Source: Chromatiales bacterium (lineage in GTDB: Bacteria; Pseudomonadota; Gammaproteobacteria; Thiohalomonadales; Thiohalomonadaceae). From it: DNA of 35,853 nt. The DNA lies in the NCBI GenBank assembly GCA_003251535.1, contig QKFD01000063.1:1-35853 (forward strand). Reading direction: 5' to 3'. The notes beneath the pieces are model-generated. The model was not told where the DNA came from. It ran no database searches and saw only the letters and a program-made list of their open reading frames with translations. This document shows, piece after piece, positions 3,001 to 35,853 of the stretch. Position 1 is the first letter of the stretch. The number at the start of each line of letters is the position of its first letter. The position numbers and the translations under genes were made by a program.

Positions 3001-4578
3001 ATCTACTTCACCCCAGCGGCGCCCGCGCTGGCGCCGGTGGAGGCGGCACTGGCGCTCTGCGGACCGCTACTCCAGTTGGTGCAGGCGCTGGCGGCCACTC
3101 CACGGGCGGCGCCGCTGGCACTGCGGGTCGTCAGTCGCGGCGCCAGCGCTGTCGAAGGGGCGCCGGTGGTGCCCCTCCAGGGGGCGATCTGGGGGATGGC
3201 GGGGAGTATCGCCGCCGAGTTCCCGGAGCTTGCCTGCAAACGGATCGACCTCGCTGAAGGGGATGAGGCGTGGCTGCTTGGGGCGCTGTGCCGCGAGGCG
3301 GTCAGCCGCTCGCGGGAGGAGCAGGTGGCGCTACGCAATGGACAGCGCTATGTCGCCCGCCTGGCCCGCCACCCCTTGGCGAGCGAGCTGTTGACCCAGC
3401 CGCTACAGTGCGCACGGGAGGGGAGCTATCTCATCACCGGTGGCCTGGGGGGGCTCGGTCTGCGGGTGGCCGAGCTGCTGGCCCAGCGCGGGGCGGGGCG
3501 GCTGGTATTGGTGGGACGCAGCGCCCCCAGTGCCGAGGCGGAGGCGCAGTTGGCGGCGATCCGCACCCAGGGGGCAGAGGTGGTGACGTTGGCCGCTGAC
3601 ATCTCCCAGCCGGCAGCGGTGGCGGAGCTGTTGGCCACCATTGATCGTACCGGCCCGCCGCTGCGCGGTGTGATCCACGCCGCGGGGTTGTTGCGCGATG
3701 GTCTGCTGGAGCGGCAGACGTTGGCCGACTTCGCGGCGGTATTTGCCGCCAAGATCGGCGGCGCCTGGAATCTGCACCAGGCCCTCATGGGGCGGCCGCT
3801 CGATCTCTTTGTGCTCTTCTCGTCGGCCTCTGCGCTGCTCGGTTCGCCGGCCCAGGCGTCCCATGCCGCCGCCAACTGGTTCATGGATGCCCTCAGCCAG
3901 CTGCGGCGGGCCGCCGGCCTGCCCTGTGTCAGTATCGACTGGGGGCCGTGGTCGGAGATCGGCGCCGCCAAGGGGGAGAAGGTGCAGTCCAACCTCACCC
4001 AGTACGGCATGAGCGCCATCGATCCGGCGGCCGGGATCGCGGCCACCGAATATCTCTTGCGCTCCAGCGCCACCCCGGTGGCGGTGATGCCCATCGATCT
4101 GCATCAGCTGGTGGCCCGCTTCCCCCTCGGGCAGGGGCCGCTGCTGTTTGCCGAGTTGACCGAGTTCTTTGGCGACAACGCCAAGGCGGGCGGGGCCGAG
4201 GCGGGGGTCGATCTCCTGGCGGCGCTGCGCAGTGCCGCACCCGAGCGGCGTCAGGCGCTGCTGGGGGACTTCCTCCGGGAGCGGGTCGCCTTTGTCCTCG
4301 GTATGGACTCGGCGGCCCTCGATGTGGGGGTTGCCCTCACTGCGCTGGGGCTCGACTCGCTCATGGCGCTGAAACTGCGCACCCTCATCGACCAGACCTT
4401 CCAGATCGATATCCCGGTGGCGAAGTTCCTCACCGGCATGTCAACCCAAGAGTTGGGGGAGCGGCTGTTGGCGGCCCTGGCGGCCCGTCTCGCCGATGAG
4501 GCGGCAGGTGATGGGGCGGCGGGGACCAACGCGGAGCCGGAGCGGCGGGAGCAGGAGTGGCTGGAGGGGGCGCTATGA
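1..4578 (+). CDS. Type I polyketide synthase module, 5' truncated (AT-DH-CMT-KR-ACP)
   Basis: The frame is open from base 1, so the KS and the start of the AT lie outside the window. Numbering from the ATG at 34: AT C-terminal half to about residue 226, with HAFHS at 70-74, the signature of malonyl-CoA-specific ATs; DH about 242-530, with HxxxGxxxxP near 275 and DACFQ near 442; C-methyltransferase about 540-925, with GAGTGGTT near 745 and the NVLHAT and GWW signatures of PKS C-methyltransferases; KR about 1050-1330, with GGLGGLG near 1134; ACP with the phosphopantetheine serine in GLDSL at 1442. No ER or TE is present, so the expected unit is an alpha-methyl, alpha,beta-unsaturated thioester. 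At the KR active site the usual Tyr is His1277 (SHAAAN). The chain ends in a short acidic tail and the stop overlaps the next start (ATGA), so PKS and NRPS are translationally coupled and probably adjacent in the assembly line. Confidence 0.95.
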   Translation, partial: GARLIAARGRLMAERCGPGAMVALLAEEGQVQGLLADLPISWAATNGERNQVLSGASEAIDELVARAEQAGVEWRRLEVSHAFHSDLMEPMLAEFRALAQGIQYQAPRLRFISTLRGAEVSTELTDPEYWVAQVRACVRYRQGLAALRQQGINHFLEIGPSTTLVGMGRVDDADGRGVWLASQKAGREAWAQLLESLGRLYEAGLEIDWAGFDRPYARRRVVLPTYPFQRQRYWLAECSGRGAPSRPVPAPAAHPLLGQRLELAESSATYFSAWISPDNPGYLQDHQLFGAVLVPGAGYVEMALSAGAEQRPRSAGLTVADIDFAQALTLNGSEPVQMQLLLEASAGGARAFRIHTQRNAEWSLHAHGRLLEETASAPQTAVALSQLTARCERSVAGEAFYDELERGGVIFGPVFGPAFRRISRCWLGHGEAVSEITVPPDAAAYALHPTVIDACFQTIAATMAADADHLCIPGGVGRFHLYRKAHGPLWCHAVAAPGPASGARCDIGDMRLFDASGQVVAELKGFEVLRLQRGKLMGSAEQAWSSWLYQLAWRPDELDGAAGALVSPTEIFTQLAPELAQMVTGEGRERGRQALQQIDHLGLGYILAALQQLGWRSALGERFNIHRLADQWDVAIQHRRLFLRLFRILEEEGIVERDGAQWQLCGAPPVIDVGAELAALQQRYPEVAPELTLLERCGSRLADVLLDRCDALQLLFAGGDADDAARLYANSPMNGLVAKAVAAALTQLPAERKLRVIEVGAGTGGTTASVLEVLATRNVEYTFTDLSPTFLAQAQARFSDHPFIDYRPLNIEEQPAAQGLESQRYDLVVAANVLHATRDLRKTVGNALSLLAPGGMLVLLEVTSRLRLTDLVFGLTEGWWHFTDLDLRPDHPLLSQPQWQALLAESGCDAVQVLAPADESEGLSVIVARRAATASTAAEAAYHWLLVDDDAGSGRRLGQQLTQLGAANHLIEAAQVAAGGEPLRAQLAALLAERTMPTQLIYFTPAAPALAPVEAALALCGPLLQLVQALAATPRAAPLALRVVSRGASAVEGAPVVPLQGAIWGMAGSIAAEFPELACKRIDLAEGDEAWLLGALCREAVSRSREEQVALRNGQRYVARLARHPLASELLTQPLQCAREGSYLITGGLGGLGLRVAELLAQRGAGRLVLVGRSAPSAEAEAQLAAIRTQGAEVVTLAADISQPAAVAELLATIDRTGPPLRGVIHAAGLLRDGLLERQTLADFAAVFAAKIGGAWNLHQALMGRPLDLFVLFSSASALLGSPAQASHAAANWFMDALSQLRRAAGLPCVSIDWGPWSEIGAAKGEKVQSNLTQYGMSAIDPAAGIAATEYLLRSSATPVAVMPIDLHQLVARFPLGQGPLLFAELTEFFGDNAKAGGAEAGVDLLAALRSAAPERRQALLGDFLRERVAFVLGMDSAALDVGVALTALGLDSLMALKLRTLIDQTFQIDIPVAKFLTGMSTQELGERLLAALAARLADEAAGDGAAGTNAEPERREQEWLEGAL

Positions 4579-7500
4579 CCGTTGATCAGCTGTTGGATGA
4601 GTTGGCCCGCCGCGGCGTGGAGCTGTGGATCGATAGCGGCCTGCTCCGTTTCAAGGCCCCCAAGGAGGCGCTGGACGAGGCGCTACTGGCGCTGCTCAAG
4701 GCGCGCAAGGCGGCGGTCATCGAGCGCTTGGCGAGCCGCGGCGGGAGTCAGCGCCGCCACCCGCTCACCTATGGCCAGCGGTCGCTCTGGTTTCTGCACC
4801 AGGTGGCGCCGACCACCGCCGCCTATAACGTCGCCTATCCGTGCCGCATCCGTTCGGCGATCGATCTGCCTGCCTTCAATCGGGCGCTACAGCAGCTGAC
4901 GGCGCGCCACTCTGCCCTGCGCACCGCCTTTGTGGTGAGCGGCGGGGAGCCGTTTCAGGAGATCGCCGAGCAGGTCGAACCCACCTGTAGCCTGGTGGAG
5001 GTTGCCGGTTGCACCCAGGCGGTGTTGGCGGAGCAGGTGGCCAACGCCTACCGTCAGCCGTTTGATCTCTCCCAGCCGCCGCTGCTGCGGGCCACGCTGT
5101 TCCGTCGGGCGGCGGATGATCAGGTGCTGCTGCTGGTGCTCCACCATCTGGTGTGTGATGGCTGGTCACTGATGCAGATCCTGGTGGATGAGTTAGGCCA
5201 GCTCTACCAGGCCGCGCTGACGGGGGTAGCGGCGGCGTTGCCGGCCGTCATGCCGCAATATGTCGATTACGTCCATTGGCAGCGCCACTACCTGACCCAA
5301 CCCGCCGCCGCGCAGGCGCTGGCCTATTGGCGCGAGCGGCTGGCGGGTGAGCTGCCGGTGCTGGACCTCCCCACCGATCGGCCGCGGCCGGCGGTGTCGG
5401 CGCTGCGCGGCGCCTCCTATGGCTTTGAACTCCCGCCGCCGTTGGCGTCCGCCATGCGGGCCGTGGCCCAGGCCCACAACGCCACCCTCTACATGTATCT
5501 GGTCGCCGCCTTGCAGCTGCTACTGGCGCGCAACTCCGCCCAGGAGGAGGTGCTGATCGGCTCACCCAGTGGCGATCGCAGTCGGCCCGACTTCGCCGCT
5601 ATGGTGGGGCACATGGTCAATACCATCGTGCTGCGCGCCCAGCTGGGTGATAACCCACCGTTTGCCGAGCTGCTACAGCGGGTGCGGAGTGAGGTGCTGA
5701 ACGCCCTGGAGCACCAGGAGTACCCCTTTGCCCTATTGGTGGAGCAGCTGCAACCGGAGCGGGATCTGAGCCGCTCGCCCATCTTCCAGGCGATGGTGGT
5801 GACCCACAAAGGGGAGGGGCGCCAGGAGCTGTTTGGTGGCACCGCGGCGGCCGGCCGCTGGGGCGGCATGGTGATCGAGCCATACACCATGCCGCAGCAG
5901 GCGGGGCAGTTTGACCTCACCCTGGAGGTGGCCGAGGTGGGTGAGGCGCTGGCCTGCGTCTTCAAGTACAACGCCGAGATCTTCACCCCTGAGCACATCG
6001 CCAATCTGGCCGAGCAGTTTCAGGTGTTGGTGGCCGCGGTCAACCGCGCACCGCAGACCCCGGTGGCGCTACTACCACTGCTCAGCGCGCAGGAGTTACA
6101 GCTCCAGTTGGAGCAGTGGAACGCCACCGCCGCCCCCTGGTTGTCAGACCAGTGTCTCCACCAGCTCTTCGCCGCCCAGGTGCAGCGCACCCCGGATGCC
6201 CCGGCCCTGGTCACCCCGACCGAGCGTTTGAGTTACCGCGAACTGGAGGCGCGGGCCGAGCAGCTGGCGGCCCAGTTGCGCCAGCTTGGGGTGGGACCGG
6301 AGCAGCTGGTGGGGGTCTTTCTGCCGCGCCAGAGTGCCCTCATCGTGGCGCTGCTGGCGGTATTGAAGGCGGGGGGGGCCTATGTGCCCATCGATCCCCG
6401 TTACCCGCCCCAGCGCATCGCCTTCATGGTGGAGGATGCCGCCGCCCGCATCATCATCACCGACTCCAGCCTGGTGGGGCGGCTGCCGGCCACCGCGGCC
6501 ACGGTGGTGCAGGTGGATGGGCCGCCACCACCGCTGCCGGCGGCAGCGGCGGATGAGGTGCGCCCGCCCCGCCCGGCCGATCTCGCCTACGTGCTCTTCA
6601 CCTCCGGCTCCACCGGCCGGCCGAAGGGGGTGCAGATCGAGCACCGCAGCGCGGTGGCCATGCTCTGCTGGGCACGGGATAGCTTCTCCGCGGCGGAGCT
6701 GAGTTGGGTGCTCGCCTCCACCTCGGTCTGCTTTGATCTCTCGGTGTTTGAGATCTTTGTCCCCCTGAGCTGGGGGGGCTGCGTGGTGCTGGCGGAGAGT
6801 GCGCTGGAGCTGCCGCAGCTGGCGCTGGCGGGGCAGGTGACCCTGATCAACACCGTGCCCTCGGCCATTGCCGAGCTGCTGCGTATCGATGGTATCCCCG
6901 CTGGGGTGCGTACCATCAATCTGGCCGGTGAGCCGTTGAAGGGGGCGCTAGTGCAGGCGCTCTATCGCCACACCGGGGTGGAGCGGGTGCTCAACCTGTA
7001 TGGGCCGAGCGAGGACACGACCTACAGCACCTGGGCCGTCATCCCGCGTGACGATAGCGCGGCGCCCACCATCGGTCGCCCCATCGCCAATACCCGCGCC
7101 TATGTGCTCTCGCCGCAGTTGCAGCCGGTCCCCATCGGCACCCCGGGCGAACTCTATCTGGCCGGGGCGGGCCTCTCCCGTGGTTACTGGCAGCGGCCGG
7201 ATCTCAGTGCGGAGCGGTTTCTGCCGGACCCCTTCGTCACCGATCCCGCCGCCCGCATGTATCGCACCGGCGATTTTGTCCGCTACCTGGCCAACGGCGA
7301 GCTGCTCTATCTCGGGCGGGCCGACAATCAGGTCAAGCTGCGTGGGTTCCGTATCGAGTTGGGCGAGGTGGAGGAGGTGCTCTCCCGCTTCCCCGCGGTA
7401 CAGGAGGTGGCGGCGTTGGTCCACAGCGACCATCAGGGGGCCAAGTTGGTCGCCTACCTCGCCGCCAAGCCGGGGAGCGACGCGCCGGTGCTGGCGGAGT

Positions 7501-9146
7501 TGCGCGAGTTTGCCCGTGCCCAGCTCCCCTACTTCATGGTTCCCACCGACCTCATCCTGCTGCCCCAGATGCCCCACACCCCCAACGGCAAGATTGATCG
7601 CGCCGCCCTGCCGGCCCCGGCGGTCGCCACTGCCCCACTGGCGGTGGCGGCGGGGAGTGCCCCCAGTGGGGCGCTGGAGCGGGTGGTGGCGGGGATCTGG
7701 GAGGAGGTGTTGGAGCGCTCCCCCATCGCCAGCGATGACAACTTTTTTGAGATCGGCGGCCACTCGTTGTTGGCGGCCAAGGTGAGCCACCGGCTCAATC
7801 AGATCCTCGGGACCCAGCTGGGGGCGGGGCTGCTATTCGAGTATCCCACCATCGCCGCCCTGGCCCGCGCCATCGACGCCATCCAGTCCGGGACGGTGCC
7901 CCACGGCGCAGGGGCGGCGGCGCTGGACCTCTGGGCGGAGGCGGAGCTGGATCCGGCGCTTGTCCCGCCCAGCGGCGGTCAACCGGCCAGCTTGGACGGC
8001 GCCCGCTCCGTGCTGCTCTCCGGCGCCACCGGTTTCATCGGCGGCTATCTGCTGTGGGAGTTGCTGCGCCACTCCAGCGCCGTGATCCACTGCCTGGTGC
8101 GGGCCGCCGACGAGGCGCAGGCGCTGGAGCGTATCGCGCTGTCGCTCCAGCGTCATGGGGTTGAGTTAACGGCCGCCCAGCAGGCCCGTATCCGGCCGCT
8201 GTTGGGGGATCTGGTGGCGCCGCATTTCGGTCTGTCGGAGGCGGTCTATGGGGCGCTGGCCGAAGAGGTGGATCTGCTGTTTCACAGCGCCGCGGCCCTC
8301 AACCTCGCTTACCCCTATCCGCTGCTCAAACCGACCAATGTGGATGGCACCACTGAGTTTATCCGCTTCGCCTGCACGGGGCGGATCAAACCGCTGCACT
8401 ACCTCTCCACCATCTCGGTATTCGACGGCAGCGGCTACTTTGACGGCCGGGTAATCCGCGAGACGGACGAGCCCGATGAGATCACTGGCCTCGACCATGG
8501 CTACGCCCAGAGTAAGTGGGTCGCCGAGCGCCGGGTGAAGGCGGCGGCGCAGCGCGGGCTGCCGGTCACCATCCATCGCCTCGGTTCGGTGATCGGCGCC
8601 AGTGATACCGGCATCTGGCACGCCGACGACATCATGCACCAGATGCTGGCCGCCGCCGTCGAGCTAGAGCAGTGGATCGATATCGATCTGGCCACCTATC
8701 TCGCGCCGGTGGACTACGTGGCGCGCTCTATTGTCGAGCTGGCGCGCCACCCCTCCGCCTTTGGCCAGACCTTCCATCTCATCGCCTCCAATGTGGTCCG
8801 TTCCGGGGAGGTGCGGGACTGGTTGCACGGCTGCGGTATCGACCTCGCGCCGGTCTCCTCCGCCGAGTGGCAGGGGAGCTTTGCCCGCCGCTTGGCCGAG
8901 GGGGGGGCCCCGCCACCCCGCTGGAGCGGGCTGCTGCCGCTGCTCGAACACCTCTTCTCCGAGGAGCAGTTGGCGAAGCTGCTGGATCGGCACGCCCGCA
9001 GCCCGCGCTTCGATTGCAGTGGGGCGGAGCGTGCGTTGCGCGCCGCCGCCATTGCCACCCCGGCGGTGGATGGGGCGTTGATGCGGCGCTTCCTCGCCAC
9101 TCGCGGCAACTTTACCGCCCCCGCTGACCTGGCGGCGGTGGAGTGA
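4575..9146 (+). CDS. NRPS: TubC docking-C-A-PCP-terminal thioester reductase
   Basis: ATG 4575 is chosen over the upstream GTG 4557 because it forms an ATGA overlap with the PKS stop and follows GGAGGGGG. The product is 1523 residues. Residues 1-55 match the TubC N-terminal docking fold (GVELW, LRFKAPK, LLALLKARK). The condensation domain follows, with HHLVCDG at 190-196. The adenylation domain has LFTSGSTGRPKG near 674, YGPSED, YRTGD and NGKID. By manual alignment its ten specificity positions read D-L-F-N-N-A-L-T-Y-K, which I associate from memory with alanine. The carrier domain has GGHSLL with Ser1064. The C-terminal third is a Rossmann reductase (SGATGFIGGY near 1150, catalytic YAQSK at 1310-1314), which releases the chain as an aldehyde or, after a second reduction, an alcohol. 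No TE or epimerase domain is present. One amino acid is therefore added to the acyl chain from the upstream PKS and released reductively. Confidence 0.95.
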   Translation: MTVDQLLDELARRGVELWIDSGLLRFKAPKEALDEALLALLKARKAAVIERLASRGGSQRRHPLTYGQRSLWFLHQVAPTTAAYNVAYPCRIRSAIDLPAFNRALQQLTARHSALRTAFVVSGGEPFQEIAEQVEPTCSLVEVAGCTQAVLAEQVANAYRQPFDLSQPPLLRATLFRRAADDQVLLLVLHHLVCDGWSLMQILVDELGQLYQAALTGVAAALPAVMPQYVDYVHWQRHYLTQPAAAQALAYWRERLAGELPVLDLPTDRPRPAVSALRGASYGFELPPPLASAMRAVAQAHNATLYMYLVAALQLLLARNSAQEEVLIGSPSGDRSRPDFAAMVGHMVNTIVLRAQLGDNPPFAELLQRVRSEVLNALEHQEYPFALLVEQLQPERDLSRSPIFQAMVVTHKGEGRQELFGGTAAAGRWGGMVIEPYTMPQQAGQFDLTLEVAEVGEALACVFKYNAEIFTPEHIANLAEQFQVLVAAVNRAPQTPVALLPLLSAQELQLQLEQWNATAAPWLSDQCLHQLFAAQVQRTPDAPALVTPTERLSYRELEARAEQLAAQLRQLGVGPEQLVGVFLPRQSALIVALLAVLKAGGAYVPIDPRYPPQRIAFMVEDAAARIIITDSSLVGRLPATAATVVQVDGPPPPLPAAAADEVRPPRPADLAYVLFTSGSTGRPKGVQIEHRSAVAMLCWARDSFSAAELSWVLASTSVCFDLSVFEIFVPLSWGGCVVLAESALELPQLALAGQVTLINTVPSAIAELLRIDGIPAGVRTINLAGEPLKGALVQALYRHTGVERVLNLYGPSEDTTYSTWAVIPRDDSAAPTIGRPIANTRAYVLSPQLQPVPIGTPGELYLAGAGLSRGYWQRPDLSAERFLPDPFVTDPAARMYRTGDFVRYLANGELLYLGRADNQVKLRGFRIELGEVEEVLSRFPAVQEVAALVHSDHQGAKLVAYLAAKPGSDAPVLAELREFARAQLPYFMVPTDLILLPQMPHTPNGKIDRAALPAPAVATAPLAVAAGSAPSGALERVVAGIWEEVLERSPIASDDNFFEIGGHSLLAAKVSHRLNQILGTQLGAGLLFEYPTIAALARAIDAIQSGTVPHGAGAAALDLWAEAELDPALVPPSGGQPASLDGARSVLLSGATGFIGGYLLWELLRHSSAVIHCLVRAADEAQALERIALSLQRHGVELTAAQQARIRPLLGDLVAPHFGLSEAVYGALAEEVDLLFHSAAALNLAYPYPLLKPTNVDGTTEFIRFACTGRIKPLHYLSTISVFDGSGYFDGRVIRETDEPDEITGLDHGYAQSKWVAERRVKAAAQRGLPVTIHRLGSVIGASDTGIWHADDIMHQMLAAAVELEQWIDIDLATYLAPVDYVARSIVELARHPSAFGQTFHLIASNVVRSGEVRDWLHGCGIDLAPVSSAEWQGSFARRLAEGGAPPPRWSGLLPLLEHLFSEEQLAKLLDRHARSPRFDCSGAERALRAAAIATPAVDGALMRRFLATRGNFTAPADLAAVE

Positions 9147-9170
9147 ACTGCGGTCCGCAAAGGAGATAGC

Positions 9171-9962
9171 ATGACCCTGACCCAAGCTGAGATCGCCCAC
9201 TGGTTCCATATCCCGCAGCCCCGCGAGCGCCCGCTGCTGCGGCTCTACACCTTTCCTTTTGCCGGTGGCACCGGCACCGCCTACCACGCCTGGGCCAAGC
9301 TGTTACCGCCCTCTATCGAGCTGTGCGCAGTGATGTTGCCGGGGCGCTTGGGGCGGCTGGAGGAGACCCCCTATAACCGCATGGCGCCGCTGGTGGCGGA
9401 GCTGGCCCGTCTTATCGCCCGGCGCGACCCAACGCCGTTCCTGCTCTTTGGCCACAGCATGGGGGCGGTGCTGGCCTACGAGGTGAGCCACCGGCTGTGG
9501 CAGCAGTTTGGCCGCCTGCCGCTGCATCTCATCGCCTCCGGCCACCGCGCCCCGCAGCTGCCCAATCGGCGCGCCGAGATCTATCGCCTGCCGCAGGCGC
9601 AGTTCATAGAGGAGCTGCGGCAGTTCAACGGTACCCCACCGCAGCTGCTGGCGGATCAGGACTTGATGGACCTACTGCTGCCGGCGCTGCGCGCCGATTT
9701 CGAGATGTTGGGCACCTTGCCCTATGTCGAACGGGCCCCCCTGCCGCTACCGATCACCGCATTTGGTGGACGTGAAGATGGAGAGGCGAGCCTGGCAGAG
9801 ATCGAGGCGTGGTCGATCCACACCGGTGAGCAGTTCAACTGGGAGCAGTTTGACGGGGGGCACTTTTTTGTCCATGAGCGCCGCGGTGAGGTGGTCGCCC
9901 GGGTGGGCGCCATCTGCATCGCCGCCACGGCAGCGCTGCCGCTCGCCCAGGGTGTCGGCTGA
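9171..9962 (+). CDS. Type II thioesterase (GrsT/SrfD family)
   Basis: A 263-residue alpha/beta-hydrolase. The N-terminal FPFAGGTGTAYHAW region and the nucleophile elbow GHSMG (Ser96) are diagnostic of external thioesterases of PKS/NRPS systems, and GGHFF near the C-terminus carries the catalytic His. Members of this family act in the cytosol to clear aberrant or stalled acyl groups from carrier domains; they do not normally release product. That fits here because the NRPS already ends in a reductase. The ATG follows AAAGGAGATAGC, a strong ribosome binding site. It lies 24 bp after the NRPS stop, so it belongs to the same operon. Confidence 0.93.
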   Translation: MTLTQAEIAHWFHIPQPRERPLLRLYTFPFAGGTGTAYHAWAKLLPPSIELCAVMLPGRLGRLEETPYNRMAPLVAELARLIARRDPTPFLLFGHSMGAVLAYEVSHRLWQQFGRLPLHLIASGHRAPQLPNRRAEIYRLPQAQFIEELRQFNGTPPQLLADQDLMDLLLPALRADFEMLGTLPYVERAPLPLPITAFGGREDGEASLAEIEAWSIHTGEQFNWEQFDGGHFFVHERRGEVVARVGAICIAATAALPLAQGVG

Positions 9963-9968
9963 GAGAGC

Positions 9969-9986
9969 GCCCAGGGTGACCTGGGC
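9969..9986 (+). other. Intercistronic hairpin between TEII and FAAL genes
   Basis: GCCCAGG and CCTGGGC form a perfect 7-bp stem with a GTGA loop, starting 7 nt after the TEII stop. No T-tract follows, so it is more likely an mRNA-stability or attenuating element inside the operon than a true terminator. Confidence 0.4.
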
Positions 9987-10021
9987 AGGGAGCTGGTCTA
10001 TGCAGCAAAGGAGAGATGGCA

Positions 10022-12151
10022 ATGGGCATTGAGGCGCAGAGCAGCAGCCTGGTGGAGCTGCTTCAACGGCGGGCGCAGGCAGCGCCGGAGGGGCTCGCCT
10101 ATGAGATGTTACGCGGTGAGGGGGAGGTGGAACAGCGCCTCACCTTTGCGGCGTTGGATAGGCAGGCTCAGGGGATTGCGGCGGCGCTGCTGGAGCGCGC
10201 CCGGCCGGGGGATCGGGCGCTGCTGCTCTACCACAACGGGGTGGAGTTTCTCGCCGCCTTCTTCGGTTGCCTCTATGCCGGGGTGATCGGCGTGCCGCTC
10301 TATCCGCCGCGCCTCAATAAGCACCTGAGCCGCCTGACGGCGGTCGCCCGCGACTGCGCGCCGCGGCTGATCTTGGCCTGTAGCGGCAACCAGCGACACA
10401 TGGAGTCGCTGCTGGCGACGCTGCCCCCCGCGGACCGTCCCAGCCTGCTGGAGGCCGATACCATCGCGCCGGCCGCGGCGGGTGAGGTGTGGCGCGGGAG
10501 CGCCCACGAGCTGGCCTTTTTGCAGTACACCTCGGGCTCCACTGGCATCCCCAAGGGGGTGATGGTGAGCCACGCCAATCTGCTGCACAACCTCGGCCAT
10601 ATGCAGCGCGGTTTCCGTTACGACGCCCACTCCCACATGGTGAGCTGGCTGCCGGTGCACCACGACCTCGGCCTCATCTTCGGTGTCCTGCTGCCGCTGT
10701 ATGGGGGCTTCCCCGCCACCCTGTTGCTACCGGCCGCCTTTGTCCAGCGCCCCTATCGTTGGTTGAAGGCGATCAGCGATAGCCGCGCCACCACCACCGG
10801 GGCACCCAACTTCGCCTTTGAGCTGTGTGTCGATGCGATTGGCGAGGAGGAGCGGCGCAGCCTCGATCTCTCTAGCCTGCGTCAGGTGTTGAATGCGGCG
10901 GAGCCGGTGCGTGCCAGCACCCTGCAACGCTTTGCCCACCACTTTGCCGACTGCGGTTTCCGCGCGGAGAGCTTCAATCCCTGCTACGGCATGGCCGAGG
11001 CGACGCTGCTTATCTCCATGCACCAGGGGCCCGATCGGTTGACCATCGATGAGGTGGCGAGTGCCGCCTTGGAGCGCGGTCAGGTGCAGCCGGTGGCCGC
11101 GGGGGAGGAGGGGCGCCCCTTTGTCGGCTGTGGCAGCGGTTTTGCCGATCAAGCGATCCGCATCGTCGATCCACAGACGCTGCAACCCCTCCCGGACCAG
11201 CAGATCGGCGAGCTATGGGTGCGCGGGCCGAGCGTCTGCCGCGGCTATTGGGGACGGGAGGAGGCGACCGCCGAGGCGTTTGGCGGTGCGCTGGCGGGGG
11301 CGGCGGCGGGTGCCCCCTTTCTGCGCACCGGGGACCTCGCCTATGTGCGGGAGGGACAGGTCTTCATCGCCGGTCGGCTGAAGGATCTCATCATTGTGCG
11401 CGGCAACAACCACTACCCGCAGGATATCGAGTACACGGTGCAGGATTGTTGGCAGGGGTTCCACTCCCAGCGGGGGGCGGCCTTTGCCATCGAGCGCGAT
11501 GGTGAGGAGCGGCTGGTGGTGGTGCAGGAGGTGGCGCGGGTATTCCGCGACAAGATCGATCCAGAGCAGATAGGTCGGCAGGTGGGCAATGCCATCGCCC
11601 AGGCGCATGAGTTGAAACTAGATCGGCTAGTGGTGGTACGGCCTGCCTCCATCCCGCTCACCAGCAGCGGCAAGATCCAGCGGCGACTGACCAAACAGCT
11701 GTGGTTGGCCGATGAGCTGGAGGTGATCGCCCAGTGGGGCGCCAAACCCGAGCCGGCCTTGGCGGCCACACCCCGTAGTCCGGCCCAGGGGGAGCTGTTC
11801 CGCAAGGAGCTGAAGGCGTGGTTGCGGGAGGAGTTGGCGGCGCAGTTCGCGGTGCCGCTGGAGGCGGTGCCGCTGAACGAGCCCTACGCCTACCTCGGCT
11901 TCGACTCCCTCATCGCCACCGCCGTCGCCAGCAAACTGGGCCGCTTCATCGGCCATGAGGTAGAGGCCAACTGCTTCTTCGACTACCCCACCCTGGAGGC
12001 GCTCAGCGGCTGGCTGGTGGTCGAGTATGGTGCCGATGGCGCGGGTCTCCCTCCACCGGTGCCGGCCAAGCGAGGGGGGCGGGGTCTCGATCTGGACGCC
12101 ATCGAACAGATGAGCGATGAAGAGGCCGAACTCCTGTTGCGGGAGTTGTGA
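10022..12151 (+). CDS. Fatty-acyl-AMP ligase fused to an acyl carrier domain (FAAL-ACP)
   Basis: ATG 10022 is preferred to ATG 10016: AGGAG at 10009-10013 is 8 nt from 10022 but only 2 nt from 10016. The product is 709 residues. The adenylation part has YTSGSTGIPKGVMVSH near 169-184, the SWLPVHHDLGL and NPCYGMAE motifs typical of FAALs, RTGDLAY, and the carboxy-terminal GRLKDLIIVRGNNHYPQDIE. A carrier domain follows, with GFDSL and its serine at 629. FAALs activate a free fatty acid as acyl-adenylate and pass it to an ACP instead of CoA, so this is the probable loading module for the truncated PKS. The last 20 or so residues (IEQMSDEEAELLLREL) resemble acidic C-terminal tails used for docking between assembly-line proteins. 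The substrate chain length cannot be read from sequence. Confidence 0.93.
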   Translation: MGIEAQSSSLVELLQRRAQAAPEGLAYEMLRGEGEVEQRLTFAALDRQAQGIAAALLERARPGDRALLLYHNGVEFLAAFFGCLYAGVIGVPLYPPRLNKHLSRLTAVARDCAPRLILACSGNQRHMESLLATLPPADRPSLLEADTIAPAAAGEVWRGSAHELAFLQYTSGSTGIPKGVMVSHANLLHNLGHMQRGFRYDAHSHMVSWLPVHHDLGLIFGVLLPLYGGFPATLLLPAAFVQRPYRWLKAISDSRATTTGAPNFAFELCVDAIGEEERRSLDLSSLRQVLNAAEPVRASTLQRFAHHFADCGFRAESFNPCYGMAEATLLISMHQGPDRLTIDEVASAALERGQVQPVAAGEEGRPFVGCGSGFADQAIRIVDPQTLQPLPDQQIGELWVRGPSVCRGYWGREEATAEAFGGALAGAAAGAPFLRTGDLAYVREGQVFIAGRLKDLIIVRGNNHYPQDIEYTVQDCWQGFHSQRGAAFAIERDGEERLVVVQEVARVFRDKIDPEQIGRQVGNAIAQAHELKLDRLVVVRPASIPLTSSGKIQRRLTKQLWLADELEVIAQWGAKPEPALAATPRSPAQGELFRKELKAWLREELAAQFAVPLEAVPLNEPYAYLGFDSLIATAVASKLGRFIGHEVEANCFFDYPTLEALSGWLVVEYGADGAGLPPPVPAKRGGRGLDLDAIEQMSDEEAELLLREL

Positions 12152-12152
12152 G

Positions 12153-13445
12153 ATGGCACTGGCCCAGTTATGGCGCGGGGCGGCCACCACGCGGCGGGTG
12201 GGCGAGGCCTATTTCATGGCGCTCTCCGCGCTGGGGGTGGGCAGCGACATCGTGGTGACCTGCGAGTTGCAGCGGCCACTGGCGGTAAGCCGCGCCATCG
12301 CGGCGTTTGGCGAGCTGCTGGAGCAGTGGCCAGCGCTGCGTTATCGCCGGGTGCGGCGAGGGACGGAGTGGCACTGGCGGCCACCCCAGGATGGGGCGTG
12401 GCGGCTGGCCTGGCAGCAGCTCAGTGACGCCCTGGCCAGGGGGGAGTCCCCCACCGCCGCGGACGGCGGCGATCAGCTGCCGTTGCGCCTCTCCGCCTGT
12501 AGCGAGGTCCGCCTGGTGTTTCGGCTGGACCACACCTTTGGCAATGGGCGCGCCGCGTTGGTGTGGATCGAACGCTACTTCCAACGGCTCTCCGCGGCGT
12601 CAACGGGGCCTGCCGAGGCCCCCTCCGGTCGGCGTCAGCGGTTGCAGGCCGGCGGGCCGTTGGCCCTCTTCCCGGCGCTACGCTACCTCTCCCGCCACCT
12701 GCGGCTGCGGCAGCGGCTGACGGCGACCGGTACGGACCTGCGGCAACCGCTCATGGGCGAGGCAACTGATGCGGCGCCAGGGTATTGGGAGGGGCGCTTT
12801 GTCTGGTCTCAGCAGGAGCTACAGCAGCGGCTACTACGCCACGCCGGGGCGGCGGAGAGCTTCTCCCAGGTGCTCACGCGGCGCCTGGTGGAGCACACCT
12901 TGGCGTCGTGTCAGGAGCTGCGGGGGCTAGGGATCGATGTGGTGGCCGATATGCATGACACCTACCGCATCCCGCCGCCTGGCATCGGCAACTTTACGGT
13001 GTCGCTGCTGGCCTATGTGGATCGCGCGGCGCCCATCGAGGGGCAGATCGGCGCGCTATTTGGTCACCTGCAAGCCGGCCTGCCGAGGGGGATCGGCCAG
13101 CTCATGCGCCTCCTCTCGCCCACCTTGCCCCGCTTAGCGGGGCGTCTGCGCGGCGATCTGGCACGCGCCATGGGCGGGGCGGGGGTGCCGATGCTGGACA
13201 ACCTCTATACCGTCTCCAGCGTGGGCCGCATCGAGGCGGGGTCACTGCGGCAGTGGGCCCGTACCCTCTCGCTACGCACCTATACCCACGCCATCTATGT
13301 CTCCGCTACCACCATCAACGGGGCGACCGCCTTTGAGGTGACCTATCCCGTCCAGCTCTTCGACTCGACGCGGGTGGAGGCGGTGATCCGCGGCTTCTTC
13401 GAGCCGGCGGCGGCGCCTCAGGAGTGCTTGCCCACGACGAAATAG
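12153..13445 (+). CDS. Stand-alone condensation-like acyltransferase
   Basis: ATG 12153 follows GGGAG and lies 1 nt after the FAAL stop; an in-frame ATG at 12117 lies inside the FAAL gene and is less likely. The product is 430 residues. The fold signature is that of the condensation-domain/CoA-dependent acyltransferase superfamily (also PapA and WS/DGAT proteins): an N-terminal strand with LEQWPALRYR, an active-site segment DHTFGNG at 126-132 in place of HHxxxDG, a later PPPGIGNFTVS segment, and a C-terminal NLYTVSSVGRI similar to the structural motif near the domain end. The second, catalytic His (127) is kept, while the first His is Asp and the motif Asp is Asn. It may esterify or amidate the released product or offload the chain to an alcohol or amine. 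The family assignment rests on motifs and cluster context; the exact reaction is unknown. Confidence 0.7.
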   Translation: MALAQLWRGAATTRRVGEAYFMALSALGVGSDIVVTCELQRPLAVSRAIAAFGELLEQWPALRYRRVRRGTEWHWRPPQDGAWRLAWQQLSDALARGESPTAADGGDQLPLRLSACSEVRLVFRLDHTFGNGRAALVWIERYFQRLSAASTGPAEAPSGRRQRLQAGGPLALFPALRYLSRHLRLRQRLTATGTDLRQPLMGEATDAAPGYWEGRFVWSQQELQQRLLRHAGAAESFSQVLTRRLVEHTLASCQELRGLGIDVVADMHDTYRIPPPGIGNFTVSLLAYVDRAAPIEGQIGALFGHLQAGLPRGIGQLMRLLSPTLPRLAGRLRGDLARAMGGAGVPMLDNLYTVSSVGRIEAGSLRQWARTLSLRTYTHAIYVSATTINGATAFEVTYPVQLFDSTRVEAVIRGFFEPAAAPQECLPTTK

Positions 13446-16160: not shown

Positions 16161-16829
16161 ATGTTGCTTCGTATGCTGGCCAGCACCCTGGCGCTGGTCT
16201 CGCTGTTGGCCTCCGCCCAGGTCTCTGCCGCTGTGCCCATCACCACCACCACCAGTGACGGCACTGTCCCGGGTACCACCATCAACTACACCATCAGCGC
16301 CAGCGGGACCGCACGGGAGATCTTCTCCCCTGGCGCCACCGATGCCGATACCTGGTCTTGGAGCAACGGCTTTCCGGAGTTTGTGGGGGTCAACACGCAA
16401 ACCTTGACGGTCAGCTTCAGCGAGCCGGTCCCCATCAACCGGCTGGTGCTGGGGGTCAACAGCTTCAGCTCCTCCACCTTTACCCTCACCCTCAGTGGCG
16501 GCACGGCGGCCACCACCGACTTTGACCTGGCGGACGGCATCGCCACCTTCGGCGGCACGGCCACCTATGACGGCGCCTCGGGCACCTTCAACGCCCCCGG
16601 TACCAACCGCACCTTGATGATCGGCAGCACCTCCGCCGCCACCATCACCAGCTTCACCCTGAGCGGTAATAACGGCGCTGACGGCTACACCCTCTTCTTC
16701 GGCACCACCGACTCCGCCCCAGTCACCGCAGTGCCCGGCCCGGTTGGCCTGCCGCTGGCACTGCTCGCCATGGTGATGGCGGGGGGTGGCTACAGCGCCC
16801 TGCGCAAGGGCAAGCGTAACCAGGGCTAA
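16161..16829 (+). CDS. Secreted CTERM (PEP-CTERM/VPLPA-like) surface protein
   Basis: ATG 16161 follows AAGGGG; 222 residues. The N-terminal signal peptide ends near SAQVSAA (residue 24). The mature part is rich in Thr, Ser, Gly and Asn with alternating beta-strand patterns and no enzymatic motif, as expected for an extracellular adhesin or biofilm-matrix protein. The C-terminus has the three parts of an exosortase sorting signal: a short motif (AVPGPVGLPL), a hydrophobic helix (ALLAMVMAGGGYSAL) and a basic tail (RKGKRNQG). The motif is a variant of VPLPA/VPEP. Exosortase-type enzymes cleave such signals and pass the protein to the envelope; none is encoded in the window. A CRP-type site lies upstream and a strong hairpin lies downstream, so it is probably a single-gene unit. 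Confidence 0.8.
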   Translation: MLLRMLASTLALVSLLASAQVSAAVPITTTTSDGTVPGTTINYTISASGTAREIFSPGATDADTWSWSNGFPEFVGVNTQTLTVSFSEPVPINRLVLGVNSFSSSTFTLTLSGGTAATTDFDLADGIATFGGTATYDGASGTFNAPGTNRTLMIGSTSAATITSFTLSGNNGADGYTLFFGTTDSAPVTAVPGPVGLPLALLAMVMAGGGYSALRKGKRNQG

Positions 16830-16882: not shown

Positions 16883-16927
16883 CGCCCCACAGTCAGTAGC
16901 GGCCATCGAACAGAAAAAAACCGCATT

Positions 16928-17093
16928 GTCGGTTGGGTTAGCGCAGCGTCACCCGACGATCCCCACCCCGGCACCACCGTTACAAACGCAGCAGTGGAAT
17001 CCCCATCTCTGGCAAAACCAACAGTCCCAGTGGAATGTGGTTGTGCCCCTGCGGGGGATTGTCGGGTTACGCTGCGCTAACGCCGACCTACAT
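16928..17093 (-). repeat. Palindrome-bounded dispersed repeat, copy A (inverted orientation)
   Basis: Bounded by two GTCGGGTTA/TAACCCGAC-type palindromes (about 16931-16957 and 17061-17087). The interior aligns, as the reverse complement, with the units at 33258 and 35651: shared blocks include ATCCCCACCCCGGCAC, CAGCAGTGGAA, ACCAACAG, CAGTGGAATG and GTGCCCCTGCGG. It is more diverged than those two. It carries no coding frame and looks like a BIME/MITE-type element. Confidence 0.75.
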
Positions 17094-17170
17094 CGGATAG
17101 CGTCCACTTCGAGGGGCTTGCCTGAATAACCCATCCCGGAGGAGGTCCCACTCCGGCGATGATGAGGGTA

Positions 17171-17240
17171 GGTTGGGTTAGCGGAGCGTCACCCAACCAT
17201 CCCCACCCCGGCACCCGCTGTAGTGGATTCCCGCTGTGGG
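17171..17240 (-). repeat. Partial copy of the palindrome-bounded repeat
   Basis: A palindrome with arms GGTTGGGT/ACCCAACC (17171-17198) is followed by ATCCCCACCCCGGCAC, the same order as the start of copy A, and then diverges. Compensating changes keep the arms paired, suggesting selection on the hairpin or descent from a different REP subtype. Confidence 0.6.
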
Positions 17241-17263: not shown

Positions 17264-18664
17264 CTAAACCGAGATAAATAGCGCCAGTGTGATGACGCCT
17301 AGCAGAACGCTGACGATGATGGCACCGGTGATTGCCGCTGCCAGCCAAGGGGGGGCTGCCTCTTGGCAGCTGCGGCCATGGGTGGGTTGGTGGGGGAGTC
17401 GGCTGCCTAGATAGGTCAGTAGCAGATCGACATGGCGATCTCCCTTGATGCCATCCCCCACGATAAAGCAGCGGCCATCTTGGGTGTGGAGGCGGATGGC
17501 ATATTCGATCTCCGAGTGGGCCCCTTGATCCGTTTGGGTGCTAATCCGCTTGTCGAAGCCGTAGATATCGCGGGTGCTCAGGGTTCGGCTGAAGCGCTTC
17601 TGGAAGAAGTGGCGGGTGATGGTGAGCTGGTCTCCCGTCAGCTCCACTTGCAGCCGATTGACCAGGTAGTAGAGCCCCCCCAAGAGCATGGCGCTGCCGG
17701 CAAACGCCAGGCCAAGGAATAGCACCAGCTTGGTCAGCAGCGCGAAGAGCGGTGGCTGGTCAGGGCCAAAGCTCTGATACAGGACATAGAGCATGAAGAG
17801 GGAGCCGGCATCGGCGGCGGCGCCGAAGGCGAGTAGTAGTTGACCGAAGGAGCGCTCTCTTCCCGGGGGGTAGTCGATGGTGAAGCCGTTGGCGCGCTCC
17901 TCCACCCGCGCTATCTCCGCTGGCAGCGTCGCAATCTCGGCCCGGGTAGGGGCGGTCTCGGGCGATGCCGGCGGCTCTGTATCGCGCGCTGTCTCGTTGC
18001 CGAGCCGGAAGACGGGGATGGTAAATGACTCGTCGAATCCCACGGCGGGGACCTGCACCCGCACCATCCAGACGATGGCCACCTTGAGATTGCGGCTCTC
18101 CTCCACATGCTGGAGGGAGGCGTCGGGTTGATCGGCATCGACTAAGGCGTTGAAGCGGACCTCGCTGCCGAGGTGGGCGGGGGTGACGTGGGCCTCTGCC
18201 TGGCGGCGCCAGAGCACCTGCTGGGCCGAACTCTGCCCTCGGGTATCACGGATGCAGTTGAGATCCACGCTGGCCTGGCTGCCCGCTGGCAGGCGGTAGG
18301 GGAGGCTGATTCTGCCGGCCACTTGGCCCCCAATCCGTCCTGGGTAGGGTTCAAGGGTGAGGCGGAGTTGGCGGTTTTTTTGCCACTTGAACCAGGCCTT
18401 GAGGACCAGCGGGAGCTGGATCACCACCAACAGGAGTAGAAAAAGTAGTAGTAGATAGCCGTCGAAGTGGTGGAACCCCTCCTGTAGCACCCGCTGCACG
18501 CTGGTACTGATCTCACTCCGCTTGAACAGCACCAACGGGATGATGATGAGCCCGGAGATGAGCAGACTGGCGATCTGGGCGTAGAGGTTTAAATCGACGT
18601 TGTTGGCGCGGATCTGGCCATTTTTCCAGGCCTGGCGCGCCAGCCAAGGGGCAGCGGTTGTCAT
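17264..18664 (-). CDS. Large membrane protein of unknown function
   Basis: 466 residues. Predicted transmembrane segments lie at about 29-47, 68-90, 283-303, 308-335 and 443-464. Between the second and third is a roughly 190-residue soluble beta-rich region (GRIGGQVAGRISLPYRLPAG, CIRDTRGQSS, VRFNALVDAD), and a second soluble part with a PH-like pattern (LTGDQLTITRHFFQKRFSRTL) sits between the fourth and fifth. The alternating membrane pairs and beta domains resemble DUF3592-type membrane proteins, but I cannot assign a family. The ribosome binding site is weak (GGGT, 9 nt from the ATG). The stop codon lies inside a 7-bp inverted repeat (GGCGCTA...TAGCGCC, 17260-17285). It is flanked downstream by the repeat copies and upstream by the hairpin-containing gap before the lipoprotein gene. 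Confidence 0.8.
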   Translation of the reverse strand: MTTAAPWLARQAWKNGQIRANNVDLNLYAQIASLLISGLIIIPLVLFKRSEISTSVQRVLQEGFHHFDGYLLLLFLLLLVVIQLPLVLKAWFKWQKNRQLRLTLEPYPGRIGGQVAGRISLPYRLPAGSQASVDLNCIRDTRGQSSAQQVLWRRQAEAHVTPAHLGSEVRFNALVDADQPDASLQHVEESRNLKVAIVWMVRVQVPAVGFDESFTIPVFRLGNETARDTEPPASPETAPTRAEIATLPAEIARVEERANGFTIDYPPGRERSFGQLLLAFGAAADAGSLFMLYVLYQSFGPDQPPLFALLTKLVLFLGLAFAGSAMLLGGLYYLVNRLQVELTGDQLTITRHFFQKRFSRTLSTRDIYGFDKRISTQTDQGAHSEIEYAIRLHTQDGRCFIVGDGIKGDRHVDLLLTYLGSRLPHQPTHGRSCQEAAPPWLAAAITGAIIVSVLLGVITLALFISV

Positions 18665-29872: not shown

Positions 29873-29980
29873 CAACTCATTAACTGACCCCATTTATCCC
29901 CTGCTCTACCGCCTCCCTATGCCGTGCAATAGCGCACTAGTACCGGAATAATGCCGGCAGATCCCGCATGGAGCCGCCGC

Positions 29981-32900: not shown

Positions 32901-33235
32901 TGGCCATCGCCGAGCGTTTGGCCGATGTGGCTACTGCTGCCCACGCCCGCTGGTCTTTGGGGCGCCTCGCCCTACAGCGGGAGGCTTGGCAGGAGGCGTT
33001 GAACCAGCTGGTTGAGTCCTACCGCTTAAACCAACAGCTGCGGCGACTCGATGGCATCGTCTTTGTCGGCCTCGACCTGGGTCAGCTCCTCTGTGACGCC
33101 GGCCTCCATGCCGAGGGACGGGAGGTGCTACAGCGCTCCTACGAGGGGCTGCTCACCCTCGGTCAACCCCAACTAGCGGCGCAGGTGGCAGAGTTGATGG
33201 CAAAGTGTGAGCCGGCGGCGGGCGAGGAACAGTGA
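29981..33235 (+). CDS. CHAT protease-STAND ATPase-TPR protein (predicted immunity/cell-death effector)
   Basis: ATG 29981 is chosen because GGAG lies 7 nt upstream and the frame then starts MIDPLTVLSLSQGRL; ATG 29951 has no such site. 1084 residues. CHAT caspase-like protease domain at about 60-345, with the His of HLSCHGGF (215) and Cys of FISACHSAEG (259) as the catalytic dyad. STAND/NB-ARC-type NTPase at about 375-700: P-loop GMGRQGKSS near 414-422, Walker B LLIIDDLE near 500, then a sensor-like LLTSRYNF and a winged-helix-like region. The C-terminal half is helical, with TPR-type repeats from about 860 to 1075 (for example ALELHEERLGVFERLGDQRERAVTLGDIAQIR). By analogy with characterised CHAT and STAND systems, TPRs would sense a trigger, the NTPase oligomerises and the protease is activated. 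It stands alone, so target and trigger are unknown. No membrane segment or signal peptide, hence cytosolic. Confidence 0.85.
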   Translation: MIDPLTVLSLSQGRLTLEHHSRYLERPFDVTDRGLLTDLAERYRATLKRHDPLALLAIGQALYQWLDRERWLTDLTPAPRPPWLFEVRSEATPGSDGRALLEAPWELLADTQGHLSARFNRQFTPYRRLGLPEPPAPPGRHRLGLLFMAAAPWGETTLAFEQEEAAILAAVGETEVELTVEESGNLALLAATAAELARTGEGGHAPAEVVHLSCHGGFIDGEPRLLLEEETGEAAPVGVLELMQQPPLRQARLLFISACHSAEGAAPEAATDSLAQQLLQCGFPALLGWGGAVRDDEAIAFAATLYLALARRTALEQAVGEARFALQYSPREGGSECWHLARLFLGPEGGGPLAAGGPPRRPVGVAHGIKEYLDAKGQQVPVARRSEFVGRRRPLQQALRELRGQAYAGVVIHGMGRQGKSSLAARIANRLPGLRPVVLYGDYRAERLLRAFLDAGLGAEVNRIVREYEPLVRREPERLADPLQALLHGPCAERPVLLIIDDLEQVLEAHPVGLHLPRAPERAALLEVVRAFSSQHGPSRLLLTSRYNFQLPDRDGRDLASRLLSLPLPPMDTTEQRKQLAQRRKTLLAELGGQLLVEDSERTARLLAVARGNPGLQELLYRLSRSDTAGCDRTLTALEGWLAGRALGTELDEGVRSVLEGLALGQIYHTVLAPEERYWLGVSSLFELPLPAAFVQWLAPEAPHPKRLLALGLWDSWPDPVIPQRPAVALNPLVRAVLPPLAAAEQQALACRVSGPLLAAWAAEGRPPLATLQLARLALLGAVPEVAAATAGGAVEWLYNVDRYHAAAELGQGTVQLLQGAGQLPPLPLLRASSDALVRLGEIGVARELMQLGLEGHPPAAQPHAYAALLLSWARLLGEEGEPELALRRLEQVQGYFTLAESPREYAIVSGDIARIRVGRGEVDAALELHEERLGVFERLGDQRERAVTLGDIAQIRIQAGAVEEARHLCEEQLAIAERLADVATAAHARWSLGRLALQREAWQEALNQLVESYRLNQQLRRLDGIVFVGLDLGQLLCDAGLHAEGREVLQRSYEGLLTLGQPQLAAQVAELMAKCEPAAGEEQ

Positions 33236-33257
33236 CCTTGGCTCTTATGCAGTGCAT

Positions 33258-33458
33258 GTCGGGTTAGCGCAGCGTAACCCGACAACCCTCCGCAGGGGCA
33301 CCACCGCATTCCACTGGCGCTGTTGGTGCTGCGTGGTGTGGTTGTTCCACTGCTGTGTTTGAGGGTGTGTGCCGGGGTGGGGATTGTCGGGTTACGCTCC
33401 GCTAACCCGACCTACGAAACGACGAAACTCATCGCCGAGGTGGGGCGCTATTCGCTGT
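33258..33458 (+). repeat. Tandem repeat unit B (left of the IS21 insertion)
   Basis: A unit of about 200 bp with two 26-bp palindromes (33258-33283 and 33386-33411, arms GTCGGGTTA/TAACCCGAC), a GT/TG-rich middle and a tail ending GGGGCGCTATTCGCTGT. It is nearly identical to the unit at 35649-35844, except for a few substitutions and 8 extra bases after GACCTACG. It starts 22 bp after the CHAT-STAND stop. Confidence 0.85.
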
Positions 33459-33509
33459 TGTCAGGCGACATGAAAAACTGCCCCCCTGACGACACGAAAA
33501 TTGACCCCC
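33459..33509 (+). repeat. IS21 left terminal inverted repeat
   Basis: The left end begins TGTCAGGCGACAT and ends TTGACCCCC. It pairs with 35593-35643, with seven mismatches over 51 positions. Confidence 0.85.
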
Positions 33510-33525
33510 TTGGAGAGGGGGACCA

Positions 33526-35579: not shown

Positions 35580-35592
35580 CCGAACACCTCGG

Positions 35593-35643
35593 GGGGGTCA
35601 GAATTCGTGTCGTCAGGGGGTCAGTTTTCGATGTCGCTTGACA
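35593..35643 (-). repeat. IS21 right terminal inverted repeat
   Basis: Read on the - strand it begins TGTCAAGCGACAT and contains CTGACCCCCTGACGACACGA, the same block as the left end. The element ends at 35643, directly followed by the GCTGT duplication. Confidence 0.85.
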
Positions 35644-35648
35644 GCTGT

Positions 35649-35853
35649 AGGTCGGCGTTAGCGCAGCGTAACCCGACAACCCTCCGCAGGGGCACAATCG
35701 CATTCCACGGGCGCTGTTGGTGCTGCGTGGTGTGGTTGTTTCGCTGCTGTGTTTGAGGGTGTGTGCCGGGGTGGGGATTGTCGGGTTACGCTCCGCTAAC
35801 CCGACCTACGCAACTCATCGCCGAGGTGGGGCGCTATTCGCTGTAGGTCGGCG
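35649..35853 (+). repeat. Tandem repeat unit C and start of a further unit (runs off the window)
   Basis: Starts TAGGTCGGCG right after the target duplication. It has palindromes at 35651-35677 (one base insertion in the left arm) and 35780-35805, and ends ...GCTATTCGCTG. At 35845 TAGGTCGGCG starts again, 196 bp after 35649, so the unit is tandemly repeated and continues beyond the window. Confidence 0.85.

What the first reader, a model, noticed from the sequence alone, without database searches (positions are those of the whole stretch)
16928..17240. Dispersed palindrome-bounded repeat family with paired arm changes
At least seven 26-28-bp palindromes with the same design (arms GTCGGGTTA/TAACCCGAC or the GTGA/TTGGG variants) occur in the window, alone, in pairs around a conserved ~100-bp core, or in tandem. 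Arm substitutions are compensated (GTCGGGTGA/TCACCCGAC; GGTTGGGT/ACCCAACC), so the fold seems conserved. This is the pattern of REP/BIME elements mobilised by RAYT transposases, or of a MITE.
Basis: seen in the sequence. Interest (0 to 1): 0.55.

Follow-up and report, generated by a model that had tools for sequence, protein, structure and literature searches.

The report
REP palindromes of a RAYT-type family
These palindromes belong to a large population of short repeats of a well-known bacterial kind (REP elements, mostly in inverted pairs) that a small transposase is thought to copy; that transposase sits beside the same palindrome in related bacteria but was not found in this genome's assembly, so the finding is mostly ordinary with a few lineage-specific twists.

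Summary
The repeats are real: eight full palindromes plus one cut by the contig end lie in the window (8 matches against 0.05 expected), and at least 101 in the genome. Each is a 9-bp stem with an 8-nt loop, usually after an unpaired GTAG. Neighbours within 250 bp alternate in orientation: 37 head-head pairs (gap 92-108), 27 tail-tail, 0 head-tail. They are extragenic: 0 of 101 inside ORFs of 250 aa or more, which cover 0.50 of the same DNA. These are GTAG-type REPs in REPIN/BIME units.

The transposase link was tested: in 7 related genomes the same palindrome flanks a RAYT gene and those RAYTs form one clade; in 67 of 80 named RAYT loci it lies within 600 bp.

Against it: no cognate RAYT is in this assembly, and arm compensation is clear across species (10 of 25 positions, 0.7 by permutation) but not within this genome (3 of 14, 2.0 by permutation).

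Local twist: a bulged C in one partner, absent from relatives, recurs at the same stem position in the REPs beside the resident, non-cognate RAYTs.

The parts
16926..16962 (+). REP (perfect-arm class, decayed tag GTCG, unbalanced arms); outer end of head-head unit 1
   Evidence: CM hit 50.6 bits; sequence
16963..17055 (.). 93-bp spacer ('core') of unit 1
   Evidence: gap; unit aligned with 36 others, main spacer group
17056..17093 (-). REP with bulged C in the 5' arm and GTAG tag; other end of unit 1
   Evidence: CM hit 62.9 bits; sequence
17166..17202 (+). REP, arms GTTGGGTTA/TCACCCAAC, tag GTAG; start of a second, incomplete unit 240 bp on (tail-tail gap 72)
   Evidence: CM hit 52.4 bits
29842..29878 (-). 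Single REP, arms GTCGGGTGA/TCACCCGAC (compensated pair)
   Evidence: CM hit 54.7 bits; sequence
33252..33417 (.). Head-head unit 2: REP 33252-33288 + (tag decayed to GCAT), 92-bp spacer, REP 33381-33417 - (tag GTAG)
   Evidence: folds as ssDNA with z -7.14
35645..35811 (.). Head-head unit 3: bulged REP 35645-35682 +, 92-bp spacer, REP 35775-35811 -
   Evidence: 96% identical to unit 2
35843..35853 (+). Start of a ninth REP (GTAGGTCGGCG), cut by the contig end
   Evidence: sequence; contig ends at 35853

Best explanation
This is a population of GTAG-type repetitive extragenic palindromes (REPs) organised as REPINs/BIMEs. One REP is an unpaired GTAG, a 9-bp stem (GTCGGGTTA/TAACCCGAC) and an 8-nt loop (GCGnAGCG). 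Two inverted REPs with the tags outside and a spacer of about 92-100 bp form the unit, which as single-stranded DNA can fold into one long hairpin. Proposed working: a RAYT (TnpA-REP, a Y1/HUH single-strand transposase of the clade that is flanked by this same REP in relatives) recognises tag plus hairpin in single-stranded DNA, cuts beside it and transfers the unit to new extragenic sites without target duplication. Tandem arrays with steps of about 190-250 bp then arise by ordinary local duplication. Shown here: anatomy, copy number, extragenic position, the RAYT association and the REP/RAYT co-segregation in relatives. Inferred from published work on other enzymes: recognition, cleavage and mobility. 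Not shown: a cognate RAYT in this genome; it is lost, lies in an assembly gap, or a resident RAYT of another clade has taken over.
For: 101 copies on 29 contigs, 68 of 96 full-length ones with exact GTAG; 37 head-head (gaps 92-108), 27 tail-tail (21-83), 0 head-tail neighbours. 0 of 101 in ORFs of 250 aa or more against 0.50 coverage. No target duplication beyond shuffled flanks in 37 units. Same REP beside RAYT genes in 7 related genomes from 5 families, the 7 RAYTs forming one clade (90/88; one change against 6.6 shuffled, 0 of 500). 67 of 80 named RAYT loci carry it within 600 bp, 77 of 80 some GTAG hairpin. Those 7 RAYTs share Thr15, the H57-x-H59 motif, Tyr128 and NPVKHG, the hallmarks given in PMC2817692.
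Against: No cognate RAYT in the window genome: best hits C6 (50% identity) and C27 (47%, in-frame TGA) belong to another clade with other REPs. Compensation within the genome is 3 of 14 variant positions against 2.0 by permutation. Tag decayed in 28 of 96. Transposition itself was not observed. The sister RAYT L052 (G051) has a near-identical palindrome that my pattern did not count, so the clade border of the label depends on the pattern.
Confidence: 0.93

Rival explanations
1. Same kind of element, but at present mobilised in trans by the resident RAYTs of another clade (C6/C27 type), which were matched to the window REP by the bulged C.
For: The REPs beside C6 and C27 carry a bulged C at the same stem position (GTAGG-AT-GGcGT against GTAGG-TC-GGcGT), while RAYT loci of relatives have 0 bulged copies (14 and 8 perfect ones of that REP; 34 and 136 perfect ones of the window REP). 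Of the other 4 listed bulged places of that family, 3 lie 59, 121 and 307 bp from a window-family REP (two loci, C89 and C65). Cross-activity of E. coli TnpA-REP on Marinomonas group 2 REPs is reported (PMC8266576, passages).
Against: Stems and loops differ; that family has few exact copies (2 perfect-arm, 5 with the bulged arm and the same loop), so its RAYT looks weak as a spreader. C27 has an in-frame TGA and C6 is cut by a contig end. RAYT and REP otherwise go together by clade. Two hybrid loci are few; at C89 the other REP is followed by DNA like that behind the C6 RAYT (by eye), so nesting of one element in another's cluster is possible.
Confidence: 0.2
2. Classical MITE: a deleted DNA transposon with terminal inverted repeats, moved by a DDE transposase.
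For: Dispersed inverted-repeat-bounded ~167-bp units with a conserved core.
Against: Target duplications no more frequent than with shuffled flanks; ends are self-palindromic hairpins with an unpaired tag; single REPs exist; the same palindrome flanks RAYTs.
Confidence: 0.03
3. Intrinsic transcription terminators or other RNA elements that look alike because of shared function, not mobility.
For: Hairpins behind or between genes: first cluster between convergent ORFs, unit 2 just behind the stop of 29951-33235.
Against: No T-run after the palindrome in 0 of 97 copies on the tag strand (the other strand was not counted); no Rfam family at gathering score in the window; conserved ~93-bp spacers and tandem arrays. 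A role in RNA ends after insertion stays possible.
Confidence: 0.04

Closest known systems
GTAG-tagged REPs with RAYTs (Nunvar et al. 2010, PMC2817692: abstract and Results read; Di Nocera et al. 2013, PMC3733652: abstract and the sections on GTAG families, dimers and tyrosine transposases read; figures not held)
   Same: GTAG tag, imperfect palindrome, high copy number, extragenic, head-head and tail-tail dimers with conserved head-head spacers, RAYT flanked by inverted cognate REPs, compensated arm variants between lineages.
   Different: This stem sequence was not found as text in that paper or as a REP in the library searches; the figure with the 24 consensus sequences is not held, so it may be among them. 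Here the cognate RAYT is missing from the assembly.
REPINs (Bertels and Rainey 2011, PMC3116915: abstract and passages read)
   Same: Inverted REP doublet as the unit, folding into one hairpin; tandem arrays of near-identical units including flanks; single REPs as remnants.
   Different: Longer unit (about 167 bp; 92-108 bp between REPs) with one partner bulged in the main group.
E. coli y/z REPs and BIMEs with TnpA-REP (Corneloup et al. 2021, PMC8266576: abstract, passages and one section read)
   Same: Heterodimers of two REP types, GTAG tag, stem irregularity.
   Different: In E. coli all three REP types carry a two-base mismatch bulge needed for cleavage; here only one partner has a single bulged base and REPs beside cognate RAYTs in relatives are perfect palindromes.

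Membership tests
GTAG-type REP element | Unpaired GTAG (or GTGG) next to a short palindromic stem-loop | tested here: met
   68 of 96 full-length copies have exact GTAG, 3 GTGG; 96.3% of stem cells pair on 54 copies
GTAG-type REP element | High copy number and extragenic position | tested here: met
   At least 101 copies; 0 of 101 in ORFs of 250 aa or more, 2 at 200 aa, 7 at 150 aa
GTAG-type REP element | Cognate RAYT gene flanked by the same REP in inverted orientation | tested here: met
   In 7 related genomes and 67 of 80 named RAYT loci
GTAG-type REP element | Cognate RAYT in the same genome | tested here: not met
   None in the assembly; 58 of 101 REPs lie within 600 bp of contig ends, so a gap is possible. 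Published REP populations without RAYT exist (PMC3733652, PMC8049555), so this does not exclude membership
GTAG-type REP element | RAYT-dependent cleavage and transposition | not testable with these tools
   needs biochemistry or comparison of sister strains
REPIN / BIME | Two REPs in inverted orientation with a spacer, able to form one hairpin; alternating arrays | tested here: met
   37 head-head and 27 tail-tail neighbours, 0 head-tail; one unit folded, z -7.14
Classical MITE | Target-site duplication of fixed length | tested here: not met
   32 of 37 units none, 4 of 2 bp, 1 of 4 bp, as with shuffled flanks

The most novel reading that the evidence does not exclude
A REPIN population that lost its own RAYT and was adopted by a RAYT of another clade: the cognate transposase is gone, the resident C6/C27-type RAYT has REPs with a bulged C at one fixed stem position, and the window family gained the same bulge at the same position in one partner of its largest group (23 of 25 units), so that two unrelated-looking REP families converged on one recognition mark.
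Probability: 0.15. Interest if true: 0.5.

Novelty: new member of a known kind. Interest (0 to 1): 0.22.

Why it matters
It adds a REP/RAYT pair whose palindrome is nearly unchanged across many Gammaproteobacteria and Betaproteobacteria (by record titles), with arm variants that follow RAYT lineages, and a genome where the population is large while its transposase is missing from the assembly. If the shared bulge reflects adoption by a foreign RAYT, it would give a natural test of what RAYTs recognise and of how REPINs persist without their own transposase.

Tried and rejected
PF01797 on the own genome found only the distant C38 protein, with no window-type palindrome around it; NF047646 was needed to see the C6 and C27 RAYTs. 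Those two were first taken as candidates for the cognate RAYT and set aside: other clade, other REP; the shared bulge brought them back as a rival. Rfam has no family at gathering score in the window. Classical MITE was rejected for lack of target duplication, intrinsic terminator for lack of T-runs. The 159-bp unit in 20 genomes of the family (own included): 11 have a match, and the listed matches of relatives cover 27-50 bp at the REP ends; the list was cut. Library searches for the REP string gave no REP paper. Whether the IS21 element prefers REPs could not be tested: one copy.

Rows dropped: of 134 model matches, the 33 at 19 bits or below, which by coordinates are opposite-strand shadows of kept hits. 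RAYT tree: of 72 loci scanned 1 had no hit, 9 were duplicates, 19 scored under 100 bits; 43 kept. Of 191 RAYT relatives the tool kept 80. In the arm-blind test only copies with exact GTAG, exact loop frame and no bulge enter, identical arm pairs counted once: 14 in this genome, 78 in named loci.

Full report
OBSERVATION. The window is contig C54 of a 4.63-Mb, 130-contig assembly, 95.6% complete. A loose palindrome pattern finds 8 sites in the window against 0.05 expected and 99 forward sites in the genome against 7 for the reversed control. A ninth copy is cut by the contig end at 35843-35853. A covariance model, R1, was built from 54 distinct copies. Over 35 stretches (window, 31 REP regions, 3 RAYT regions) it gives 134 matches; 33 at 19 bits or below are opposite-strand shadows, leaving 101 on 29 contigs. 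This is a lower bound, since listings and scored candidates were capped, and the copies that built the model match it by construction.

ANATOMY. Each copy is GTAG (exact in 68 of 96 full-length copies), a stem GTCGGGTTA/TAACCCGAC and a loop, most often GCGCAGCG or GCGGAGCG. Two forms exist: 28 copies with a bulged C or T in the 5' arm (GTCGGcGTTA) and 73 without. Neighbours within 250 bp alternate without exception: 37 head-head (tags outside, gaps 92-108), 27 tail-tail (gaps 21-83), 0 head-tail; 7 copies are single. Head-head pairs are 23 bulged+perfect, 14 perfect+perfect, 0 bulged+bulged. Aligned, the 37 units fall into spacer groups of 25, 5, 4, 2 and 1 at 70% identity; all 23 bulged units are in the group of 25. 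The 159-bp unit has many full-length copies in this genome. In the 20 genomes of the family searched (own included) the matches listed for relatives touch only REP ends; that list was cut. Arrays repeat with a step such as the 240 bp from 16928 to 17168. One unit, folded as single-stranded DNA, reaches -52.6 kcal/mol, z = -7.14 against shuffles; the inverted REPs alone would make much of that.

POSITION. 0 of 101 REPs lie in ORFs of 250 aa or more (2 at 200 aa, 7 at 150 aa) although such ORFs cover 0.50 (0.62, 0.71) of the same stretches. In the window the first cluster lies between convergent ORFs (16161-16829 + and 17264-18664 -), and unit 2 follows the stop of 29951-33235, a protein with CHAT, AAA and TPR domains. 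Target duplications are as rare as with shuffled flanks, and no palindrome of 97 is followed by a T-run on the tag strand.

COMPENSATION. On the 54 copies 2 of 9 column pairs have double changes, 7 cells against 2.1 shuffled (0 of 500), and 96.3% of cells pair; but column pair 15/26 is unpaired in 13 of 54. An arm-blind test, anchored only on tag and loop, gives in this genome 3 of 14 variant positions compensated (2 wobble, 9 not) against 2.0 by permutation: no evidence beyond chance. In the 80 named RAYT loci it gives 10 of 25 compensated (3 wobble, 11 not, 1 other) against 0.7, maximum 4 in 1000. Six of the ten are the one variant GTCGGATTA/TAATCC, so the independent events are fewer: besides it GTCGGCTTA, GTTGGGTTA and arms ending in CCGCC.

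TRANSPOSASE LINK. R1 finds sites in 25 of 56 genomes, own included. In G016, G017, G018, G033, G034, G040 and G047 they sit beside RAYT genes (NF047646). Of 43 RAYTs in a tree, the 7 with this REP within 700 bp form one clade (90/88), one change against 6.6 shuffled, 0 of 500. The sister of that clade, L052 (G051), has a palindrome with the same arms that my pattern missed. The seven proteins share a Thr near the N-terminus, an H-x-H motif, Tyr128 and NPVKHG, the RAYT hallmarks named in PMC2817692. A scan of one genome for each of 84,980 species with that alignment kept 80 of 191 relatives, mostly Gamma- and Betaproteobacteria by title, with a few others. 67 of 80 have the window-type REP within 600 bp and 77 of 80 some GTAG hairpin; of the 13 without, several have the same arms with another loop or a lineage variant such as GTCGGGCA/TGCCCGAC, two have none. 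Two genomes of the window's family match MAGs deposited as Thiohalomonas denitrificans, so the host is most likely a gammaproteobacterium near Thiohalomonadaceae (inference; lineage).

THE MISSING RAYT. The only RAYTs over the NF047646 cut-off in the own genome are C6 (cut by the contig end) and C27 (in-frame TGA). They are 50% and 47% identical to the cognate protein, lie in another clade and adjoin REPs with GATGGGTT-type arms. 58 of 101 REPs lie within 600 bp of a contig end, at 21 ends, where about 3 would be expected from 260 ends (my arithmetic), so a REP-flanked RAYT could be lost in a gap. But a one-contig relative, G008, has 30 R1 sites and no good match to the cognate RAYT (best E 1.6e-8, 31% identity), so REP populations without it do occur in this family.

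THE SHARED BULGE. The bulged C is absent from the window-type REPs of relatives: 0 against 134 distinct perfect arms in the named loci, 0 against 34 in the other RAYT loci. The second REP family of this genome, beside C6 and C27, has a bulged C at the same position (GATGGcGT), also absent from relatives (0 against 14 and 8 perfect copies). Its exact-arm copies are few: 2 perfect, 5 bulged with one shared loop and 1 unlike match. Three of the five lie 59-307 bp from a window-family REP, at two loci, C65 and C89. At C89 the DNA behind that REP resembles the DNA behind the C6 RAYT (by eye), so it may be a remnant of that element. A resident RAYT that reads the bulge and has adopted the window family is therefore possible, not shown.

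VERDICT. GTAG-type REPs in REPIN/BIME arrangement, cognate to one RAYT clade. The mechanism (single-strand recognition of tag plus hairpin, cleavage at a CT dinucleotide, strand transfer) is taken from E. coli, Stenotrophomonas and Marinomonas enzymes (PMC8266576, passages) and is inferred here. Local points are the spacer found only here, the one-sided bulge and the absent RAYT: a new member of a known kind.

Noticed in passing
window 33459-35643: An IS21 element (IstA 33526-34800, IstB 34800-35579) has inserted between two REP units with an apparent 5-bp duplication GCTGT (33454-33458, 35644-35648) that overlaps the GT of a REP tag; ends and duplication read by eye, single copy in the genome.
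   Followed up: partly
window 34-13445: A non-ribosomal peptide synthetase cluster: adenylation and thioester-reductase domains in 4557-9146, a thioesterase at 9171-9962 and an AMP-binding/carrier protein at 10016-12151.
   Followed up: partly
window 16161-16829: A 222-aa ORF whose C-terminus (VPGPVGLPLALLAMV... KGKR, by eye) looks like a PEP-CTERM-type sorting signal; no Pfam or NCBIfam hit.
   Followed up: no
window 29951-33235: A 1094-aa protein with CHAT, AAA and TPR domains, the architecture of some signalling or defence proteins (recalled).
   Followed up: no
L077 (C27) 3199-3861, L078 (C6) 4058-4654, L257 (C65) 1312-1685, L249 (C89) 1656-1774: A second, low-copy GTAG REP family with its own RAYTs, one with an in-frame TGA and one cut by a contig end, and hybrid clusters with the window family.
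   Followed up: partly
G008 (one contig): A one-contig relative with 30 REP sites of the window type and no good match to the cognate RAYT: a clean case of REPs without their transposase.
   Followed up: partly
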